A DNA stretch of 64,000 nucleotides from Pseudomonadota bacterium (GTDB lineage Bacteria; Pseudomonadota; Alphaproteobacteria; Acetobacterales; Acetobacteraceae). The DNA lies in the NCBI GenBank assembly GCA_021815825.1, contig JAKAZO010000008.1:1-64000 (forward strand). The letters are read 5' to 3'. This document shows, one piece after another, positions 677 to 58,299 of this stretch (positions within the stretch are counted from its first letter, which is position 1; every line of letters starts with the position of its first letter). The notes below the pieces were generated by a model that saw nothing but the letters and a program-made list of their open reading frames with translations, did not search any database and was not told the DNA's origin. Position numbers and translations under genes: made by a program.

Positions 677-864
677 GAAAGCCAGTCCTTCAGGTCAGGT
701 TGCAACAGGAACGACTAGTCGCAGTTGAACGGGATGAAATTCGCCATCCGCCGATCCAGCACCATTCCAACCGCCAGGGGAATCCGACAGACTGCTAGAC
801 TAATATCGTTCTGCAGCACTACCCTCCGCCGGCATCATGCCATCCGGTCGGAGGCTGCACTCGA

Positions 865-2300: not shown

Positions 2301-2344
2301 CGACGCAGTCTAGCCCAGCATGCGGCCACGCGGAAACCGCAGGG

Positions 2345-21398: not shown

Positions 21399-21455
21399 AG
21401 CGAAGCATTAACGAGATCCGTGGCATAGGGCGCAAGTGAGGCACGCCAGGGAGCG

Positions 21456-21498
21456 CGGTCGGACCTGATGGAATCCTCGGGCCGGAGGTTGCTCTAGC
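21456..21498 (-). repeat. Family 1 intergenic hairpin repeat, deleted copy
   Basis: Read on the minus strand this starts CTAGAGCAACCTCCG and ends GATTCCATCAGGTCCGACCG. The first part matches the left edge and the second the right part of the composite repeats at 35902-36027 and 58173-58299; the middle is missing. It lies in the 161-base gap between the glycosyltransferase fusion and livK. Confidence 0.7.
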
Positions 21499-34587: not shown

Positions 34588-35286
34588 CTACTCCAGACCT
34601 CGCAACGTCCCGGCATAGAGCACCGGCCCGGTCGGCTGCCCGGTTGGCGAGCCACCGGCCGGCTCGAGACTGACCATGAGCTGCGTGCTGGCCGTGGCGA
34701 TGCGCGGCACGGTCAGTCGCGGGACACCGGTCCGCGGAATGACGCCGAGCGAGACCGGCTTCGTCGCGCCCGGCGGCAGGGCCCAGAGCTCGAGGTCGGA
34801 CGTCGCGGCCACTTGCACCGAGGTGAGCGGGCGCAGCACCAGGCTGCCATCGGGGCGGGCCTCGGCGAGAAAGGTCGGCGCCGGGCCGCCGGCGGGGCCG
34901 AGCGTGGCGACATAGAGGGGGGCGACCGGTCTCAGCAGGAAGAGCCCGGCGAACGCGGCCGCCAGCGCCAGCGCGCCGGCCGTCGTCGCGCGCCAGAAAC
35001 GGACGCTGCGCCAGACGCTGCCCGGAAGCTCGCGCGGCGGCGCGGCGGCCACCTCCGTCGTCGGCGCGATGGCCTGCTCCAGCCGCGCCCACAAGCCGGG
35101 CGGTGGCGCGACCGGGGGCACCAGCGCGGCCAGAGGTGCCAGGCGACGTTCCCAGGCGGCAATCGCTGCGGCGAAGGCGGCATCCTGGCTGGCCCGCTCG
35201 GTCAGCATGCGCATCTCGGCGGGGTCGAGGCAGCCGAGGGCGTATTCCGCCGCCAGCACCTCCAGCGCGTCGGGACGATCGCTCAT
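34588..35286 (-). CDS. RskA-like anti-sigma factor
   Basis: A 232-residue membrane anti-sigma factor. The N-terminal cytoplasmic domain (LAAEYALGCLDPAEMRMLTERASQD...WERRLAPLA) matches the anti-sigma K family; a single membrane segment (TTAGALALAAAFAGLFLL, about 108-126) separates it from a periplasmic RskA-type domain containing LELWALPPGATKPVSLGVIPRTG. It should hold the ECF sigma factor, whose stop overlaps its start by ATGA. The inducing signal is unknown. Confidence 0.9.
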   Translation of the reverse strand: MSDRPDALEVLAAEYALGCLDPAEMRMLTERASQDAAFAAAIAAWERRLAPLAALVPPVAPPPGLWARLEQAIAPTTEVAAAPPRELPGSVWRSVRFWRATTAGALALAAAFAGLFLLRPVAPLYVATLGPAGGPAPTFLAEARPDGSLVLRPLTSVQVAATSDLELWALPPGATKPVSLGVIPRTGVPRLTVPRIATASTQLMVSLEPAGGSPTGQPTGPVLYAGTLRGLE

Positions 35287-35822
35287 GGCTCCAGGCACCT
35301 CCGCAGGCTGAGCAGGGCGCGACGGATCCACGATTTCACGGTCCCGAGCGGGGTGCCGAGCCGGTTCGCCAGGTCGGCATGGGTGAGCCCGTCGACGAAC
35401 GCCATCACGATGAGGCGGCGACGCTCGGGATCGAGCGCTTCCAGGCAGCGTTGCAGCGCCGCACCCTCGGCGGAGCGGATCAGCCCGGCGAGCGCGTCCG
35501 GGGTCTCGTCCTCGGCCTCCGGCGGCTCCAGCCCCGGCACCTCGCGCGCCGTGCGGCGGACGAGGTCGAGGGCGCGGTAGCGTACCAGGGTGACGAGCCA
35601 CGCTTCGGGCGCGCCGCGCGCCGGGTCGAACCGGGCGGCATTCCGCCAGACCTGCAGCAGCGCCTCCTGCACCGCGTCGGCGGCCAGCGCCGGAGAGCGG
35701 GTAAGGCGGAGCGCGATACCGTAGAGCCGCGCGGCCTCGCGGTCGTAGAGGCGCCGAAAGGCCGCGCGATCGCCGCTGGCGCAGGCGCGCAGCAACGCGG
35801 CGAGGTCGGCGGCAGGCGACAT
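35283..35822 (-). CDS. ECF-family RNA polymerase sigma factor (SigK/RpoE-like)
   Basis: A 179-residue ECF sigma factor with region 2 (FRRLYDREAARLYGIALRLTRSPALAADAVQEALLQVWR) and region 4 (LDPERRRLIVMAFVDGLTHADLANRLGTPLGTVKSWIRRAL). It pairs with the RskA-like anti-sigma factor it overlaps. I chose the ATG at 35822; a GTG six bases upstream (35828) is possible. The open frame back to 35969 would translate the intergenic hairpin repeat at 35902-36027 and is unlikely to be real protein. Autoregulation is probable for this class. Confidence 0.9.
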   Translation of the reverse strand: MSPAADLAALLRACASGDRAAFRRLYDREAARLYGIALRLTRSPALAADAVQEALLQVWRNAARFDPARGAPEAWLVTLVRYRALDLVRRTAREVPGLEPPEAEDETPDALAGLIRSAEGAALQRCLEALDPERRRLIVMAFVDGLTHADLANRLGTPLGTVKSWIRRALLSLRRCLEP

Positions 35823-35901
35823 GTCCGGCACGACGGTTTCCAACTCCCGCGACACTCTTTCCCGTCCGCTCCATCCGTGTCCTGCGCGGAGTGAGCCGAT
35901 C

Positions 35902-36027
35902 GAGCAACCTCCGATCTGACCGAGCCGTTCCGGTTCGGGCAAATCGGAGATGAGTTGCTCCAGGGTCATAAGGTTCTAGAGCACGACCGTCCGACCGGAT
36001 GGTCCGATCAGGTCGAACCGTCCTCTA
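35902..36027 (+). repeat. Family 1 composite intergenic hairpin repeat, full copy
   Basis: Two hairpins in series. The first runs from GAGCAAC (35902) to GTTGCTC (ends 35960) with an inner pair CTCCGAT/ATCGGAG and a tip CCGAGCCG-TTC-CGGTTCGG. The second runs from TAGAG (35977) to CTCTA (36027) around GGTCCGATCAGGTCG. The order and loops match the copy at 58173-58299. The rest of the 341-base gap (35823-36163) holds no recognisable gene. Confidence 0.82.
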
Positions 36028-36163
36028 CGGTAGCGGGGCCGGCCATGACCGACCAGAGCCGGGGCGGCAAGCGGCATCGATCCTACTCCTGGCGCTTCCC
36101 CACCTTACGCCGGCCATGGCCCGCTGGATGCCGTGAGATCGGCGTGTCTGTCGCGGCGGCGGG

Positions 36164-39109
36164 CTAGACCGCGCGGCGCTGGCGCCGGGGGAGTGGCGCC
36201 GTCTCCGCCGTTGCCTCCTCGGGGGAGATCAGGGCCTGCAGCAGGGCCGCGCGCAGCGAGGCGAGTTTGCGCTCGTTGCTCACTTTCAGGCCGAATACAT
36301 CCTTGACGTAGAAGACGTCGACGGCCCGCACGCCGTAGGTGGTGACATGCGCCGAGGCGATTTGGAGTCCCTGGGCGCTGATCGCGGCGGTGACGTCGTG
36401 CAGCAGGCCGGGACGGTCCCGTCCGTTCACTTCCAGCACAGTGTGCGTGTTGGAGGCGTGATTGTCGAGCACGACGCGGGGCGGCACATGGATGGCGCGC
36501 ATGCGGCTCCCCGCCGCGGCGCGCGCGATGCGGCGGATTTCGGTGCTCAGACGCAGCTTGCCGGACAGCGCCTGCTCGGTCACCGCCGCCAGCCGCGCCA
36601 GCCGGTGCGGCGCGTCGAAGGCGCCGCCGGCCGCATCTTGGATCCAGAACGTATCCAGCGCCATGCCGTTGGTCATGGTGTGGATGCGGGCATCGACGAT
36701 CGAGGCGCCGGCGACGGCGAGCGCGCCGGCGATGCGGCTGAACAGCCCGGCATGGTCGGCGGTGTAGATCGTGACCTCGGTGACCGCGCGTGCCGGCAAA
36801 GGCTGGGTCTCGATCATGAGCGGCATGTCGCGCTGCTCGGCCTCGCGCACCAGGCGCGCGTGCCTTGCATGGGTGGGTGGGTCGAAGGAGAGCCAGTAGC
36901 CGGGATAGCCGAGCGCGAGGAAATGCTCGATCGCCTCCCGCGGCCAGTCGGCCAGCAGCGTCGACACCGCCTCTCGGGCGCGCGCGACCCGCGCGTCGCG
37001 TTCGGTGGTCGCCAGCCCGCCCTCCAGCACCTCGGCGACACGGGCGTAGAGCTCCCGCAGCAGCGTTGCCTTCCAGCCGTTCCAGACCTTCGAGGAGACC
37101 GCGCGCATGTCGGCGACCGTCAGGATCAGCAGCAGCTTGAGCCGCTCGGGCGATTGGATGGTGTCGGCGAGATCGAGGATGGTCTTGGGGTCGTCGATGT
37201 CGCGCTTGAAGGCGGTCTGGCTGAGCAGGAGATGGTGCAGCACGAGCCAGGAGACCATTTCGGTCTCCTCCGCCGCGAGGCCGAGCGCGGGACCGACGCT
37301 GAGGGCGATTTCCGCGCCGAGTTCGGAATGATCGCCGCCACGGCCCTTGGCGATGTCGTGCAGCATCGCCGCGACGTAGAGCGCCCGGCGCGACTGCACG
37401 TGGTCCACCAGCCCGCTCGCCACCGGCGCGATCTCGGCCAGGTCCCCCTGCTCGAGCAGGTTGAGGATGCGGATGACCTCGATCGTGTGCTCATCGACGG
37501 TGAAGACATGGTAGGTGTCGAACTGCATCTGCCCGACGATGCGGCCCCAGTCGGGCAGGAAGCGGCCGAGGAAGCCGGTCTCGTTGAGGATCGACAGCCA
37601 GCGCGCGCCGTCCGGCCTCGGCGGCGCGCCGCGCCCATGACCGGGCGCGCAGCCGCACAGCAGGTCGAGGAACAGGGCCGCCGCCTCGGGGTCGTGGCGC
37701 AGCAGCACGGCGGCGCGCTCGTTGCGGATCAGCCCGCGCAGCGCCAGCGGATGCAATTCGAGGTCGCGGTCGCGCGCCAGCTTCAGGATGCGCAGCATGC
37801 GGACCGGCACTGCGATGAATTCGGGATCACCGTCGGCGAGCAGCTTGCCGTCCGCGAGCACGAACCCCTCGGCGAGAAGGGCGCGGTCGGTCTCCGCGGC
37901 CACCGCCGGCGGGCCGAGTGCTGCGCGCAGCAGGGCGGGTTCGAGCACGCGGCCGATGCGCAGCACTTCCCGCGCGGTGAGGAAATAGTGCCGCATGAAC
38001 CGTTCGACGCCGTCCTGCCGGCCATGGCGCGTGTAGCCCATCCGCGCGCCCACGACCGGCTGGAGGTCGAAGGTGAGCCGGTCCTCGGCGCGGCCGGCGA
38101 CGTAGTGGATGTGAAAGCGCAGGGTCCAGAGGAAGTCCGCCGCGCGCCGCGCCAGGCGCGCCTCGTGTTCGGTGATCAGCGCGCCGCCCGGGCCGGAGGG
38201 GTCGGCGAGCTGGCCGAGATCGGTGATCCCGAAGGCGTCACGCGCCATCCAGTACAGTGTCTGCAGGTCGCGCAGGCCGCCGCGGCCCTCCTTGATATTG
38301 GGTTCGACGACGAACGGCGTTTCGCCATAGCGCGCGTGGCGCGCGGCCCGCTCAGCCTGCTTGGCGGCGATGAATTCGCTGCTGCCGTCGGCCCGGAAGG
38401 CGGCGAACCGCTCCTGGAAGCGGGTGAACAGCACCGCCGGGCCGGTGATCAGACGGGCATCGAGCAACGTCGTGCGGATGGTCGTGTCCTCGGCCGCGGC
38501 GCTCACGCACTGATCGACGGACCGCGTCGCGTGGCCCACCTTGAGGCCGAGATCCCAGAGGAAATACAGCATGTACTCGATCAGGCCGAGAGTCTTGCCG
38601 TCAGCGTCCGGGCCGGTGATGAACAGCAGGTCGATGTCGCTGAACGGCGCCAGAACGCGCCGACCGTAGCCGCCGGTGGCAACCAGCGTCGGCAGCGAAG
38701 CCGGGCCGATTTCGCCGCAGGAATGGTCGAACAGGGCAACGAGCAGCCCGTCGATGCGCAGCGCGAGCTGGCGGGCCGCCTGCAGCCCGCCCAATTGCCC
38801 CTCCTCGAACGGCTTGCGCAGGTCGCTCTGGATGCGGGCCAGCTGGCGCCGGAAGATATCGAGGACCGCCTCGCGCGGCACGCGCCGGCGCCCGGCGTTC
38901 GTGTCGCCGGAGCCGGCGTCGTCGGTCCCGGTGCCGCCGCTGGCTGCTTCGCCGGCAGCGGACGATGCGCGATCGCGCCCCCCGCGCCCCGCCGGCGCGC
39001 CGCCACCGTCACGCCCGGTCCCGCCCGGCCCCGCGAGCCGCGCCAGGCTGCGGGAGATCTCGGCGGCGGTGGTGGCGGGCGTGTCGGAGTTGAATAAAGA
39101 AAATGTCAT
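36164..39109 (-). CDS. glnD: [Protein-PII] uridylyltransferase/uridylyl-removing enzyme
   Basis: A 981-residue GlnD, the nitrogen sensor that adds UMP to PII proteins when glutamine is low and removes it when high. The nucleotidyltransferase site is GGYGRR (146-151) with SDID (157-160). The HD domain shows MLHDIAKGRGGDHSELG near 580. Two ACT domains follow: EVTIYTADHAGLFSRIAGAL (from ~773) and HTVLEVNGRDRPGLLHDV (from ~885). Residues ~28-75 are a Gly/Ala/Ser/Asp-rich insertion before the family core, making it longer than the usual 890-940. It starts in the stop region of mutS (ATGA overlap). Confidence 0.95.
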   Translation of the reverse strand: MTFSLFNSDTPATTAAEISRSLARLAGPGGTGRDGGGAPAGRGGRDRASSAAGEAASGGTGTDDAGSGDTNAGRRRVPREAVLDIFRRQLARIQSDLRKPFEEGQLGGLQAARQLALRIDGLLVALFDHSCGEIGPASLPTLVATGGYGRRVLAPFSDIDLLFITGPDADGKTLGLIEYMLYFLWDLGLKVGHATRSVDQCVSAAAEDTTIRTTLLDARLITGPAVLFTRFQERFAAFRADGSSEFIAAKQAERAARHARYGETPFVVEPNIKEGRGGLRDLQTLYWMARDAFGITDLGQLADPSGPGGALITEHEARLARRAADFLWTLRFHIHYVAGRAEDRLTFDLQPVVGARMGYTRHGRQDGVERFMRHYFLTAREVLRIGRVLEPALLRAALGPPAVAAETDRALLAEGFVLADGKLLADGDPEFIAVPVRMLRILKLARDRDLELHPLALRGLIRNERAAVLLRHDPEAAALFLDLLCGCAPGHGRGAPPRPDGARWLSILNETGFLGRFLPDWGRIVGQMQFDTYHVFTVDEHTIEVIRILNLLEQGDLAEIAPVASGLVDHVQSRRALYVAAMLHDIAKGRGGDHSELGAEIALSVGPALGLAAEETEMVSWLVLHHLLLSQTAFKRDIDDPKTILDLADTIQSPERLKLLLILTVADMRAVSSKVWNGWKATLLRELYARVAEVLEGGLATTERDARVARAREAVSTLLADWPREAIEHFLALGYPGYWLSFDPPTHARHARLVREAEQRDMPLMIETQPLPARAVTEVTIYTADHAGLFSRIAGALAVAGASIVDARIHTMTNGMALDTFWIQDAAGGAFDAPHRLARLAAVTEQALSGKLRLSTEIRRIARAAAGSRMRAIHVPPRVVLDNHASNTHTVLEVNGRDRPGLLHDVTAAISAQGLQIASAHVTTYGVRAVDVFYVKDVFGLKVSNERKLASLRAALLQALISPEEATAETAPLPRRQRRAV

Positions 39110-47282: not shown

Positions 47283-48101
47283 ATGGCGCAATCGGCGGAG
47301 ACGGGCTTGCGGCATGCAGCGGAAGCCCGGCGCATCCTCGCCCTGGCGGGAATCGCCGACGCCGCGCTCGAGCGCGCGCTGGTCGCGGTGCCGCGGGCGC
47401 CGTTCGGCATCGAGGTGGCGGAGCCCGGCGCCGCCGACGGCGATGCCGCCGCCGCGGCGCAGGCCAGCCCGGCCCGGTGCATGCGCTGGGTGCATGCGCT
47501 CGGCGCCCAGCCCGGCGAGCACATCGTTCATGTCGGCGCCGGGTCCGGCTTTGTAACCGCGATTCTGGCCGAGCTGGTGGGCGTCACCGGACGGGTCACC
47601 GCGATCGAGATCGACCCGGACCGCGCCGATCTGGCGCGCTCGCGGCTCGTGCCGTGGGCCAACGTCACCGTCCTGTGCGCGGACGGCGCGGACTGGCCGC
47701 AGGAGCCGGTCGAGCGGGTCTTCGTCAGCGTCGCGGTGACGCATCCGGCCACGCCGTGGCTGAGCCTTCTCGGCCTCGGCGGACGGCTCGTCTTTCCCTT
47801 CGGGCCGCCGCCGGAGGACGCGGCGGCGCCCGCCGCGAACGCCCGCGCCGTGGCGGTGCTGGCCGTGGAGCGGCGGCAGCGCGGCTATGCGGCCCATTGC
47901 CTCGAAACCACTTTGTCCACGCGGGCCGCCGGCCGGCTCGCCGCCACGGGTGGCGCCGCCAACCCGCTCCGCCGTGCCTTCGGCCGCGGCGGTCTCGCCC
48001 ATATCCGCAGCCTGCGCCTGGACGCGACACCCGAAACGCCCCGGCTCTGGCTGTTCTCGCCGGAGTGGAGCCTGTCCTATGACCCGCCACCGGGGGGCTA
48101 G
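47283..48101 (+). CDS. Protein-L-isoaspartate O-methyltransferase-like SAM-dependent enzyme
   Basis: A 272-residue class I methyltransferase related to PCMT. Motif I is IVHVGAGSGFVTAILAEL, with the acidic strand VTAIEIDPDRADLARSRL. The conserved PCMT substrate loop preceding motif I is altered to ASPARCMRWVHAL, so repair of isoaspartate is not certain. AGGAGG with a GCGAT gap precedes the ATG. Its stop codon lies in the first bases of a family 2 intergenic repeat. Confidence 0.8.
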   Translation: MAQSAETGLRHAAEARRILALAGIADAALERALVAVPRAPFGIEVAEPGAADGDAAAAAQASPARCMRWVHALGAQPGEHIVHVGAGSGFVTAILAELVGVTGRVTAIEIDPDRADLARSRLVPWANVTVLCADGADWPQEPVERVFVSVAVTHPATPWLSLLGLGGRLVFPFGPPPEDAAAPAANARAVAVLAVERRQRGYAAHCLETTLSTRAAGRLAATGGAANPLRRAFGRGGLAHIRSLRLDATPETPRLWLFSPEWSLSYDPPPGG

Positions 48102-48145
48102 AGCGTGATGACCGCAGGTGGGATCGCCGCAGGTCTGAATCACGC
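48098..48145. repeat. Family 2 intergenic inverted repeat
   Basis: GCGTGAT (48103) pairs with ATCACGC (ends 48145), directly after the CTAGA containing the upstream stop codon; the inside holds CCGCAGGT twice. It has the same outer plan as 45833-45881. The remainder of this 313-base gap, apart from the repeat at 48300, shows no gene. Confidence 0.6.
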
Positions 48146-48299
48146 GATCAAACAGAGAGCTGGAGTGGGGTGGCGGAGCGGAAGCGATGTCATCCCACTC
48201 TCGTGGTCCGAGGCCAACGCCCGCTTCAGGGCGTTGGCTGAATCGGCGCACAAAATCAGACTGGTGGTCTGACGTATGGTGTGAGATCCGCGAATGTCA

Positions 48300-48358
48300 G
48301 AGCACGGCAGCAAGCTCCGATCCGGTTGAGCCGTTCCGGCTCGGGCAGAGGTGGAGTG
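48300..48358 (+). repeat. Family 1 intergenic hairpin repeat, first half only
   Basis: CTCCGATCCGGTTGAGCCG with a perfect GAGCCG-TTC-CGGCTC hairpin (48328-48342) resembles the first hairpin of the composite repeats at 35902 and 58173. The second hairpin is absent. It ends 57 bases before the DUF3108 gene. Confidence 0.65.
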
Positions 48359-58172: not shown

Positions 58173-58299
58173 CTAGAGCAACCTCCGATCCGCCTGAGCC
58201 GTTCAGGCCCAGGCGGATCGAGGATAAGTTGCGCTGGAGTGACATATTTCCAGAGCCCGGTCCGAGCAGATGATTCCATCAGGTCGGACCGGGCTCTAG
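58173..58299 (+). repeat. Family 1 composite intergenic hairpin repeat, full copy
   Basis: First hairpin: GAGCAAC (58176) to GTTGCGC (58234) with an inner stem CGATCCGCCTGAGCC against GGCCCAGGCGGATCG (one mismatch). Second: a perfect 14-base stem AGAGCCCGGTCCGA (58252-58265) with TCGGACCGGGCTCT (58284-58297) around GATGATTCCATCAGG. The layout is the same as at 35902-36027. This lies in the 471-base gap 58032-58502. Confidence 0.85.

What the first reader, a model, noticed from the sequence alone, without database searches (positions are those of the whole stretch)
35902..36027. Composite double-hairpin intergenic repeat family with four copies in 64 kb
Full copies at 35902-36027 and 58173-58299 have the same order: GAGCAAC-type hairpin with conserved GAGCCGTTC tip, spacer, then an AGAGC-type hairpin with conserved ATCAGGTCG loop. 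Partial copies occur at 48300-48358 (first half) and 21456-21498 (internal deletion, minus strand). Stems differ while pairing is mostly kept, and loops are conserved, which suggests selected structure, as in REP/BIME-type or alphaproteobacterial palindromic elements.
Basis: seen in the sequence. Interest (0 to 1): 0.6.

Follow-up and report, generated by a model that had tools for sequence, protein, structure and literature searches.

The report
IS630-type mini-transposon with methylation sites
The repeat is a small mobile DNA element (about 130 bp, two hairpins) of the alphaproteobacterial CIR type that inserts at CTAG sites and whose ends match IS630-family transposons, including a cell-cycle methylation site at one fixed position, which offers an explanation for why these repeats carry that site.

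Summary
The window holds two full copies (35899-36028, 58173-58299) and three fragments of a 130-bp element: hairpin A, 12-nt spacer, hairpin B. The genome (apparently an Acetobacteraceae MAG, from its two public congener MAGs) has about 30 or more mostly decayed copies; each congener has dozens, many near-identical.
It is not REP/BIME: no Y1/RAYT transposase in any carrier genome checked, no GTAG tag. It is of the CIR kind (Caulobacter CcrM-associated intergenic repeats): Caulobacter vibrioides elements share the architecture, the spacer-side bulge and the loop GATGATTCCATC, which contains GANTC.
New here: (1) Congener comparison gives empty sites. The element sits in CTAG, with CTAG at both ends when filled; one empty CTAG is in this window at 2310. 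(2) Alphaproteobacterial IS630-family ISs have the same ends (TA|GAGC) and mostly the same target. One end carries GANTC at exactly position 23 in 24 of 24 elements whose ends were defined without that motif; hairpin B does too. Non-alphaproteobacterial IS630s examined lack it. GANTC is about 65-fold enriched in the transposase leader.
Best explanation: a MITE mobilised in trans by IS630-family transposase. CcrM control of transposition is inferred, not shown. Copies here are mostly decaying.

The parts
35899..36028 (+). full copy 1 of the element (hairpin A 35899-35963, spacer 35964-35975, hairpin B 35976-36028); outer CTAGs mutated; both GANTC sites lost (loop GGTCC, spacer GGGTC)
   Evidence: BLAST self-family, CM E=1.2e-22, sequence
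58173..58299 (+). full copy 2 (hairpin A 58173-58237, spacer 58238-58249, hairpin B 58250-58299); intact CTAG at both ends; lacks the 3-nt bulge of B
   Evidence: CM E=2.1e-23, sequence
58272..58276 (+). GATTC (GANTC, CcrM site) in the loop of hairpin B, position 23-27 counted from the TA of the B end
   Evidence: sequence; register
48309..48349 (+). fragment: 5' part of hairpin A
21451..21497 (-). internally deleted copy: 5' end of A joined to loop and 3' arm of B (contains GATTC)
795..852 (+). decayed fragment: end of A, spacer and B
2310..2313 (.). empty target site CTAG: the orthologous site in congener G001 (L122:3527-3656) is filled by an element

Best explanation
The repeat is a non-autonomous mini-transposon (MITE) of the CIR kind: two hairpins, each bounded by C|TA|GAGC...GCTC|TA|G, joined by a short spacer. 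It is moved in trans by an IS630-family (Tc1/mariner-like) transposase that recognises the TA|GAGC ends and inserts into the TA of CTAG, which leaves CTAG at both ends of the insert. Its GANTC (CcrM) site sits at position 23 of the hairpin-B end, the place where alphaproteobacterial IS630 elements carry a GANTC at their transposase-proximal end; I infer that CcrM methylation ties end use and transposase expression to the cell cycle. In this genome no DDE_3 transposase is found and the copies are mostly decaying remnants; two congeners hold near-identical, recently spread copies. Shown: mobility, CTAG target, shared ends and register. Inferred: the trans-acting enzyme and the role of methylation.
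For: Near-identical copies with exact CTAG ends and unrelated flanks in congeners, tandem copies sharing one CTAG. Empty sites CTAG, CTAG, CTAG, CTAA, CTGG at five loci, one filled copy inside a nucleoside-hydrolase-like reading frame. IS630 elements of the class have TA|GAGC ends, mostly CTAG targets, and GANTC at position 23 of the transposase-proximal end in 24/24, with N varying (A18 G4 C1 T1) and positions 7-22 variable; four more; seven of nine named alphaproteobacterial elements. GANTC at position 23 of the B end in this genus, G017 and Caulobacter. B end scores p=3e-5 against random 30-mers with an IS630-end matrix, p=0.005 without the GANTC positions. GANTC 37.7/kb in the transposase leader against 0.58/kb in the IS middle. 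RAMA-domain (CcrM-type) methylase in all four carrier genomes. IS630 element present in congener G002 next to near-identical repeats.
Against: No DDE_3 transposase found in G000 or in G001, although G001 has many near-identical copies (both are draft MAGs). The IS of the same genome is not the unique best match to the repeat's inner end sequence. The hairpin-A end matches the IS ends less well than B. Why each end is a bulged hairpin is unexplained; IS ends are not unusually foldable. No transposition or methylation data.
Confidence: 0.72

Rival explanations
1. Host-serving CcrM/GcrA sites: GANTC platforms kept by selection for chromosome or gene regulation (the role Chen & Shapiro are reported to have suspected for CIR), with spread only a means.
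For: GANTC in B loop and spacer of nearly all young copies (part of that set was picked by a pattern that includes the loop site); genome-wide GANTC depletion of about 2-fold; GcrA binds methylated GANTC DNA (PMC3667746).
Against: In this genome the loop GANTC is kept in only 5 of 16 full copies and the copies decay; position 23 is shared with real transposons, so the site is explained without a host role.
Confidence: 0.12
2. RNA-level element: paired hairpins acting as bidirectional terminator or mRNA stabiliser, kept for structure.
For: Very stable folds; covariation across the genus; slightly more compensated double changes than shuffles among own copies.
Against: 149 pair-breaking against 44 pair-keeping single changes in own copies; exact CTAG insertion ends and empty sites; no Rfam family. 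Individual copies may still act as terminators.
Confidence: 0.06
3. MITE moved by a different enzyme that also targets CTAG, for example an IS5-group transposase (4-bp YTAR/CTAG duplication, own knowledge).
For: Empty sites cannot tell a CTAG duplication from a TA duplication inside CTAG.
Against: TA|GAGC ends and GANTC register match IS630 elements. IS5 ends in these genomes were not surveyed.
Confidence: 0.07
4. REP/BIME element mobilised by a RAYT (Y1) transposase.
For: Paired hairpins in inverted arrangement, intergenic, many copies.
Against: No PF01797 in four carrier genomes with a working control; CTAG ends, no GTAG tag; 130-bp unit.
Confidence: 0.02

Closest known systems
CIR, Caulobacter CcrM-associated intergenic repeats (Chen & Shapiro 2003, read through PMC2229807)
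   Same: About 110-130 bp, two long inverted repeats with a linker, GANTC at a terminal loop, TA at the termini, many copies in alphaproteobacteria; C. vibrioides elements share bulge ATAA and loop GATGATTCCATC.
   Different: Stem sequences are this genus's own; copies occur inside a gene too (G002:C28:984), whereas CIR are described as intergenic only; target CTAG and IS630-like ends are new information (the TSD of CIR is listed as '?').
IS630 family (IS630, ISY100; ISRm10-1 and ISRm2011-2 in Sinorhizobium)
   Same: TA target duplication, preference for CTAG, TA|GAGC ends in alphaproteobacteria, GANTC at position 23 of one end.
   Different: The repeat has no gene, is 130 instead of about 1050 bp, and each end is folded into its own hairpin.
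RIME (Rhizobium-specific intergenic mosaic elements; mentioned in PMC2573895)
   Same: Intergenic, mosaic, palindromic repeats of alphaproteobacteria (as I recall, about 110 bp with two palindromes).
   Different: Sequences not at hand, so no comparison was made.
REP/BIME with RAYT
   Same: Paired hairpins, intergenic, high copy number.
   Different: No Y1 transposase, no GTAG tag, larger unit, CTAG insertion target.
Dam control of IS10/IS50/IS903 (PMC9296519)
   Same: Adenine-methylation sites in the transposase promoter region.
   Different: Here GANTC/CcrM instead of GATC/Dam, in the IS630 family, and only inferred.

Membership tests
CIR | Two long inverted repeats joined by a linker, about 110 bp | tested here: met
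   (130 bp here)
CIR | GANTC site at or in a terminal loop of one stem-loop | tested here: met
   Loop of B in young copies; lost in window copy 1, present in copy 2
CIR | Many copies in alphaproteobacterial genomes, TA at termini | tested here: met
CIR | Sequence match to published CIR1-CIR4 | tested here: inconclusive
   C. vibrioides DSM 9893 elements match in loop, bulge and layout, but the CIR paper could not be read
CIR | Strictly intergenic | tested here: not met
   One copy in G002 interrupts a nucleoside-hydrolase-like frame; this is reported for CIR as an observation, not as a definition
IS630-family MITE | Insertion at TA with duplication | tested here: met
   Empty sites CTAG against CTAG...CTAG; TA and CTAG duplication cannot be told apart
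IS630-family MITE | Terminal sequences shared with an IS630-family IS | tested here: met
   TA|GAGC at both ends, GANTC at 23 on the B end; no unique parent IS
IS630-family MITE | IS630-family transposase in the genome | tested here: inconclusive
   DDE_3 in G002 and G017, none found in G000 and G001
IS630-family MITE | Moved in trans by that transposase | not testable with these tools
   needs a transposition assay
REP/BIME | RAYT (Y1) transposase in the genome | tested here: not met
REP/BIME | GTAG/CGTC tag beside a 20-40 bp palindrome | tested here: not met
   Ends are CTAG, hairpins 53 and 65 nt; definition from abstract of PMC3733652
RIME | Sequence match to published RIME1/RIME2 | not tested
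   reference sequences not at hand

The most novel reading that the evidence does not exclude
In alphaproteobacteria an IS630 subfamily and its CIR-type MITEs are controlled by the cell-cycle methylase CcrM: GANTC sites cluster in the transposase leader, one at a fixed place in the transposon end. Transposition would be tied to replication-coupled hemimethylation, the CcrM counterpart of Dam control of IS10, and the old puzzle of why CIR repeats carry GANTC is answered by descent from such ends.
Probability: 0.5. Interest if true: 0.8.

Novelty: new member of a known kind. Interest (0 to 1): 0.62.

Why it matters
CIR-type repeats have been known since 2003, but how they move and why they keep a CcrM site stayed open: PMC2229807 lists their target duplication as '?' and asks for more information on mobility, and a 2023 review (PMC10073500) has 'Unknown yet' in the CcrM row of its table where Dam is credited with IS10 transposition. 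A target site, a likely enzyme family and a fixed-register methylation site in real transposons make both questions testable with one plasmid assay. It would also mean that CIR copies should not be read as cell-cycle regulatory sites by default.

Tried and rejected
RAYT/Y1 association: no PF01797 in carriers. Rfam: no match in the window. Plasmid collection: no match to the repeat. Class-wide covariance-model scan: 9 of 385 genomes, but only 8 candidates per genome were scored, so this is a lower bound, and at least one hit (L087) is not such an element. Idea that the hairpin shape already exists in IS ends: IS ends are not significantly folded (mean z -0.6), so the origin of the hairpins stays unexplained. 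Idea that the IS of the same genome is the unique source of the ends: not supported. Selection on structure at each site in this genome: not supported for most copies. The paper by Chen & Shapiro could not be read.

Full report
Observation. In genus consensus the element reads CTAGAGCAACCTCCGATCTGCCCGAGCCGTTCCGGCTCGGGCAGATCGGAGATAAGTTGCTCTAG (hairpin A), about 12 nt of spacer (ACTCATATGGTT), and CTAGAGCACGACCGTCCGACCTGATGATTCCATCAGGTCGGACCGTGCTCTAG (hairpin B). Hairpin A has a 4-nt bulge on its 3' arm and hairpin B a 3-nt bulge on its 5' arm, so both bulges face the spacer. The window also holds three fragments (48309-48349, 21451-21497, 795-852).

Copy number. One copy as BLAST query finds 32 hits in the 3.2-Mb own genome. 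A covariance model (R1) gives 70 hits at E<=0.01, many of them the two strands of one palindrome. The copies of this genome are older: 9 to 42 differences from consensus among those aligned.

Structure. On 19 sequences 18 of 52 pairs show a change on both sides against 7.9 in shuffles (0/500). Among copies of this genome alone, single changes break pairs 149 times and keep them 44 times, although double changes that keep pairs exceed shuffles (23 against 14.4, 8/1000). I read this as structure kept while the family is active, with resident copies then decaying.

Kind. No Rfam family matches. RAYT (PF01797) is absent from all four carrier genomes searched, while the control finds it in Caulobacter and others. 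A scan of named genomes with the arm-loop-arm pattern of hairpin B (so the hits share that motif by selection) found it in Caulobacter vibrioides DSM 9893, other Caulobacter and Phenylobacterium, Acetobacteraceae including Roseococcus, Novosphingobium, Thalassobaculum and Pseudochelatococcus. The C. vibrioides element TTAGAGCCTGTCTGGTTTAGATGGAACCATCTAAACCAGATAAACAGGCTCTA-spacer-TAGAGCCC..TTTAGATGATTCCATCTAAAGCTAAAGGGCTCTA repeats the two hairpins, the ATAA bulge on the spacer side of A and the loop of B, while the stems differ. The description of CIR in PMC2229807, two long inverted repeats with a linker, GANTC at a terminal loop, TA termini, fits. The original CIR paper could not be read, so identity with CIR1-4 is inferred.

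Mobility and target. In congeners the element starts and ends exactly with CTAG next to unrelated flanks, and tandem copies share one CTAG. Orthologous sites without the element: G000:C73:76670-76799 against ..gtgc-CTAA-ccgatc.. in G002; G001 L144:1128-1257 against ..gact-CTAG-gcgg.. in G002, at the end of another CTAG-ended palindrome; G001 L122:3527-3656 against ..gcagt-CTAG-cc.. in G002 and in this window at 2310; a G001 tandem pair (L050) against ..atcaag-CTAG-tgctctg.. in G002; G002:C28:984-1113 against ..ctggcg-CTGG-cg.. in G001, inside a reading frame with a nucleoside-hydrolase-like motif DPGTDDA (motif recognised from memory). Further sites are partial. CTAG is depleted about 11-13-fold in these genomes (279 against 3184 expected in 1.17 Mb of G002; 92 against 1175 in 0.42 Mb of G000), which by itself would steer insertions away from most coding sequence (inference).

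Link to IS630. Looking for longer CTAG-bounded elements in G002 gave an insertion sequence at C31:87173-88225, bounded by CTAG, with a DDE_3 (PF13358) transposase. Its ends are CTAGAGCGTTTTCCGATCAGTCTGGGTCATA and CTAGAGCGTTTTCCGACCAGGCGGAATCGAG; compare hairpin A (variant) CTAGAGCAACGTCCGATCAGACTGAACC and the B end CTAGAGCACGGTCCGACCTGATGGAATCATC. I then took IS630 loci from a class-wide survey and defined ends only by TA-flanked inverted repeats. All 24 full-length elements with TA|GAGC-type ends have GANTC at positions 23-27 of one end; N is A in 18, G in 4, C in 1, T in 1, while positions 7-22 vary. Wherever orientation could be assigned, the GANTC end is the transposase-proximal one. Both flanks read CTAG in 15 of 22 such elements and the other 7 fit YTAR (counted by eye). 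Four more alphaproteobacterial elements fit, and none of the non-alphaproteobacterial IS630s whose ends could be defined has GANTC at 23 (three further non-alpha cases); those controls also have other terminal sequences. Among nine named alphaproteobacterial elements seven fit: Rhizobium, Novosphingobium pNL1, Sinorhizobium ISRm10-1 and ISRm2011-2, Azospirillum, and, with TAAAGC at one or both ends, Paracoccus and Pseudosulfitobacter; a Methylobacterium element lacks it and a Roseomonas locus was not resolved.

Leader. Over 23 non-redundant elements GANTC occurs 65 times in the first 75 bp (37.7 per kb), 7 times in the last 75 bp (4.1 per kb) and 12 times in the middle (0.58 per kb). Sites cluster at 23, 33-37 and 54-60, ahead of a transposase start usually near position 94. 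The B end of the repeat has its GANTC at position 23 in this genus, in G017 and in Caulobacter. Scored with a matrix of IS630 GANTC ends, the own-consensus B end is at p=3e-5 against random genomic 30-mers over positions 7-30, and p=0.005 when the GANTC positions are left out; Caulobacter and G017 B ends reach 5e-4 and 6e-5 in the latter test. The IS of the same genome is not the unique best match, so the claim is 'ends of this IS630 kind', not 'ends of this IS'.

Mechanism. ISY100, an IS630-family element, needs only its transposase, inserts at TA and duplicates it (PMC2170065); IS630 prefers TA in CTAG (title of Tenzen & Ohtsubo 1991, cited there). A gene-less element with the right ends can be served in trans; that this happens here is inferred from ends, target and recent spread. 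All four carrier genomes encode a methylase-type RAMA domain, which among the control genomes was found only in Caulobacter. Dam methylation of transposase promoters limits IS10, IS50 and IS903 to the time after replication (PMC9296519), and GcrA, a cell-cycle regulator, binds DNA in a way that depends on adenine methylation (title of PMC3667746). By analogy the GANTC cluster would time IS630 and CIR movement. This step is unproven.

Open points. No DDE_3 was found in G000 or G001; incomplete assemblies or loss could explain it, and loss suits the decayed state here. Why each end is folded into its own bulged hairpin is unexplained. Library searches found no paper that links CIR with IS630 or CcrM with an IS630 leader, but most subscription papers are not in that library.

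Noticed in passing
window 48098-48300: A mosaic of other CTAG-type palindromes (CTAGAGCGTGATGACCGCAGGTGGGATCGCCGCAGGTCTGAATCAC..., CTGGAGTGGGGTGG...CATCCCACTCT, GCCAACGCCCGC...GGGCGTTGGC) lies directly before the hairpin-A fragment; relatives of the first occur at several places in G002 with GANTC at position 23.
   Followed up: partly
L280:7173-8226 (G002:C31:87173-88225) and L302-L357: Alphaproteobacterial IS630 elements carry a cluster of GANTC sites (positions 23, 33-37, 54-60) in the leader before the transposase gene, about 65-fold over the rest of the element.
   Followed up: yes
G002:C28:236039, 241885, 251792: Another repeat, a 43-bp near-perfect palindrome with CTAG ends (CTAGAGTCTGTCAGCGCTTCAATGAAGCGCTGACAGACTCTAG), serves as an insertion site for the element and for the IS630 copy at G002:C31.
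   Followed up: partly
window and fetched G000/G002 contigs: CTAG is depleted about 11-13-fold and GANTC about 2-fold against base composition.
   Followed up: no
L046, L050 (G001), G002:C11:30861-31300: Head-to-tail tandem copies that share a single CTAG, as expected for repeated insertion at, or recombination between, the end sites.
   Followed up: no
G002:C28:984-1113: A copy interrupts a nucleoside-hydrolase-like reading frame that is uninterrupted in G001 (L196).
   Followed up: no
window 35899-36028: Copy 1 lies between glnD (36164-39109, minus) and an RskA-type anti-sigma region (34591-35907, minus); copy 2 lies upstream of an aminotransferase gene (58413, plus). Effects on these genes were not tested.
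   Followed up: no
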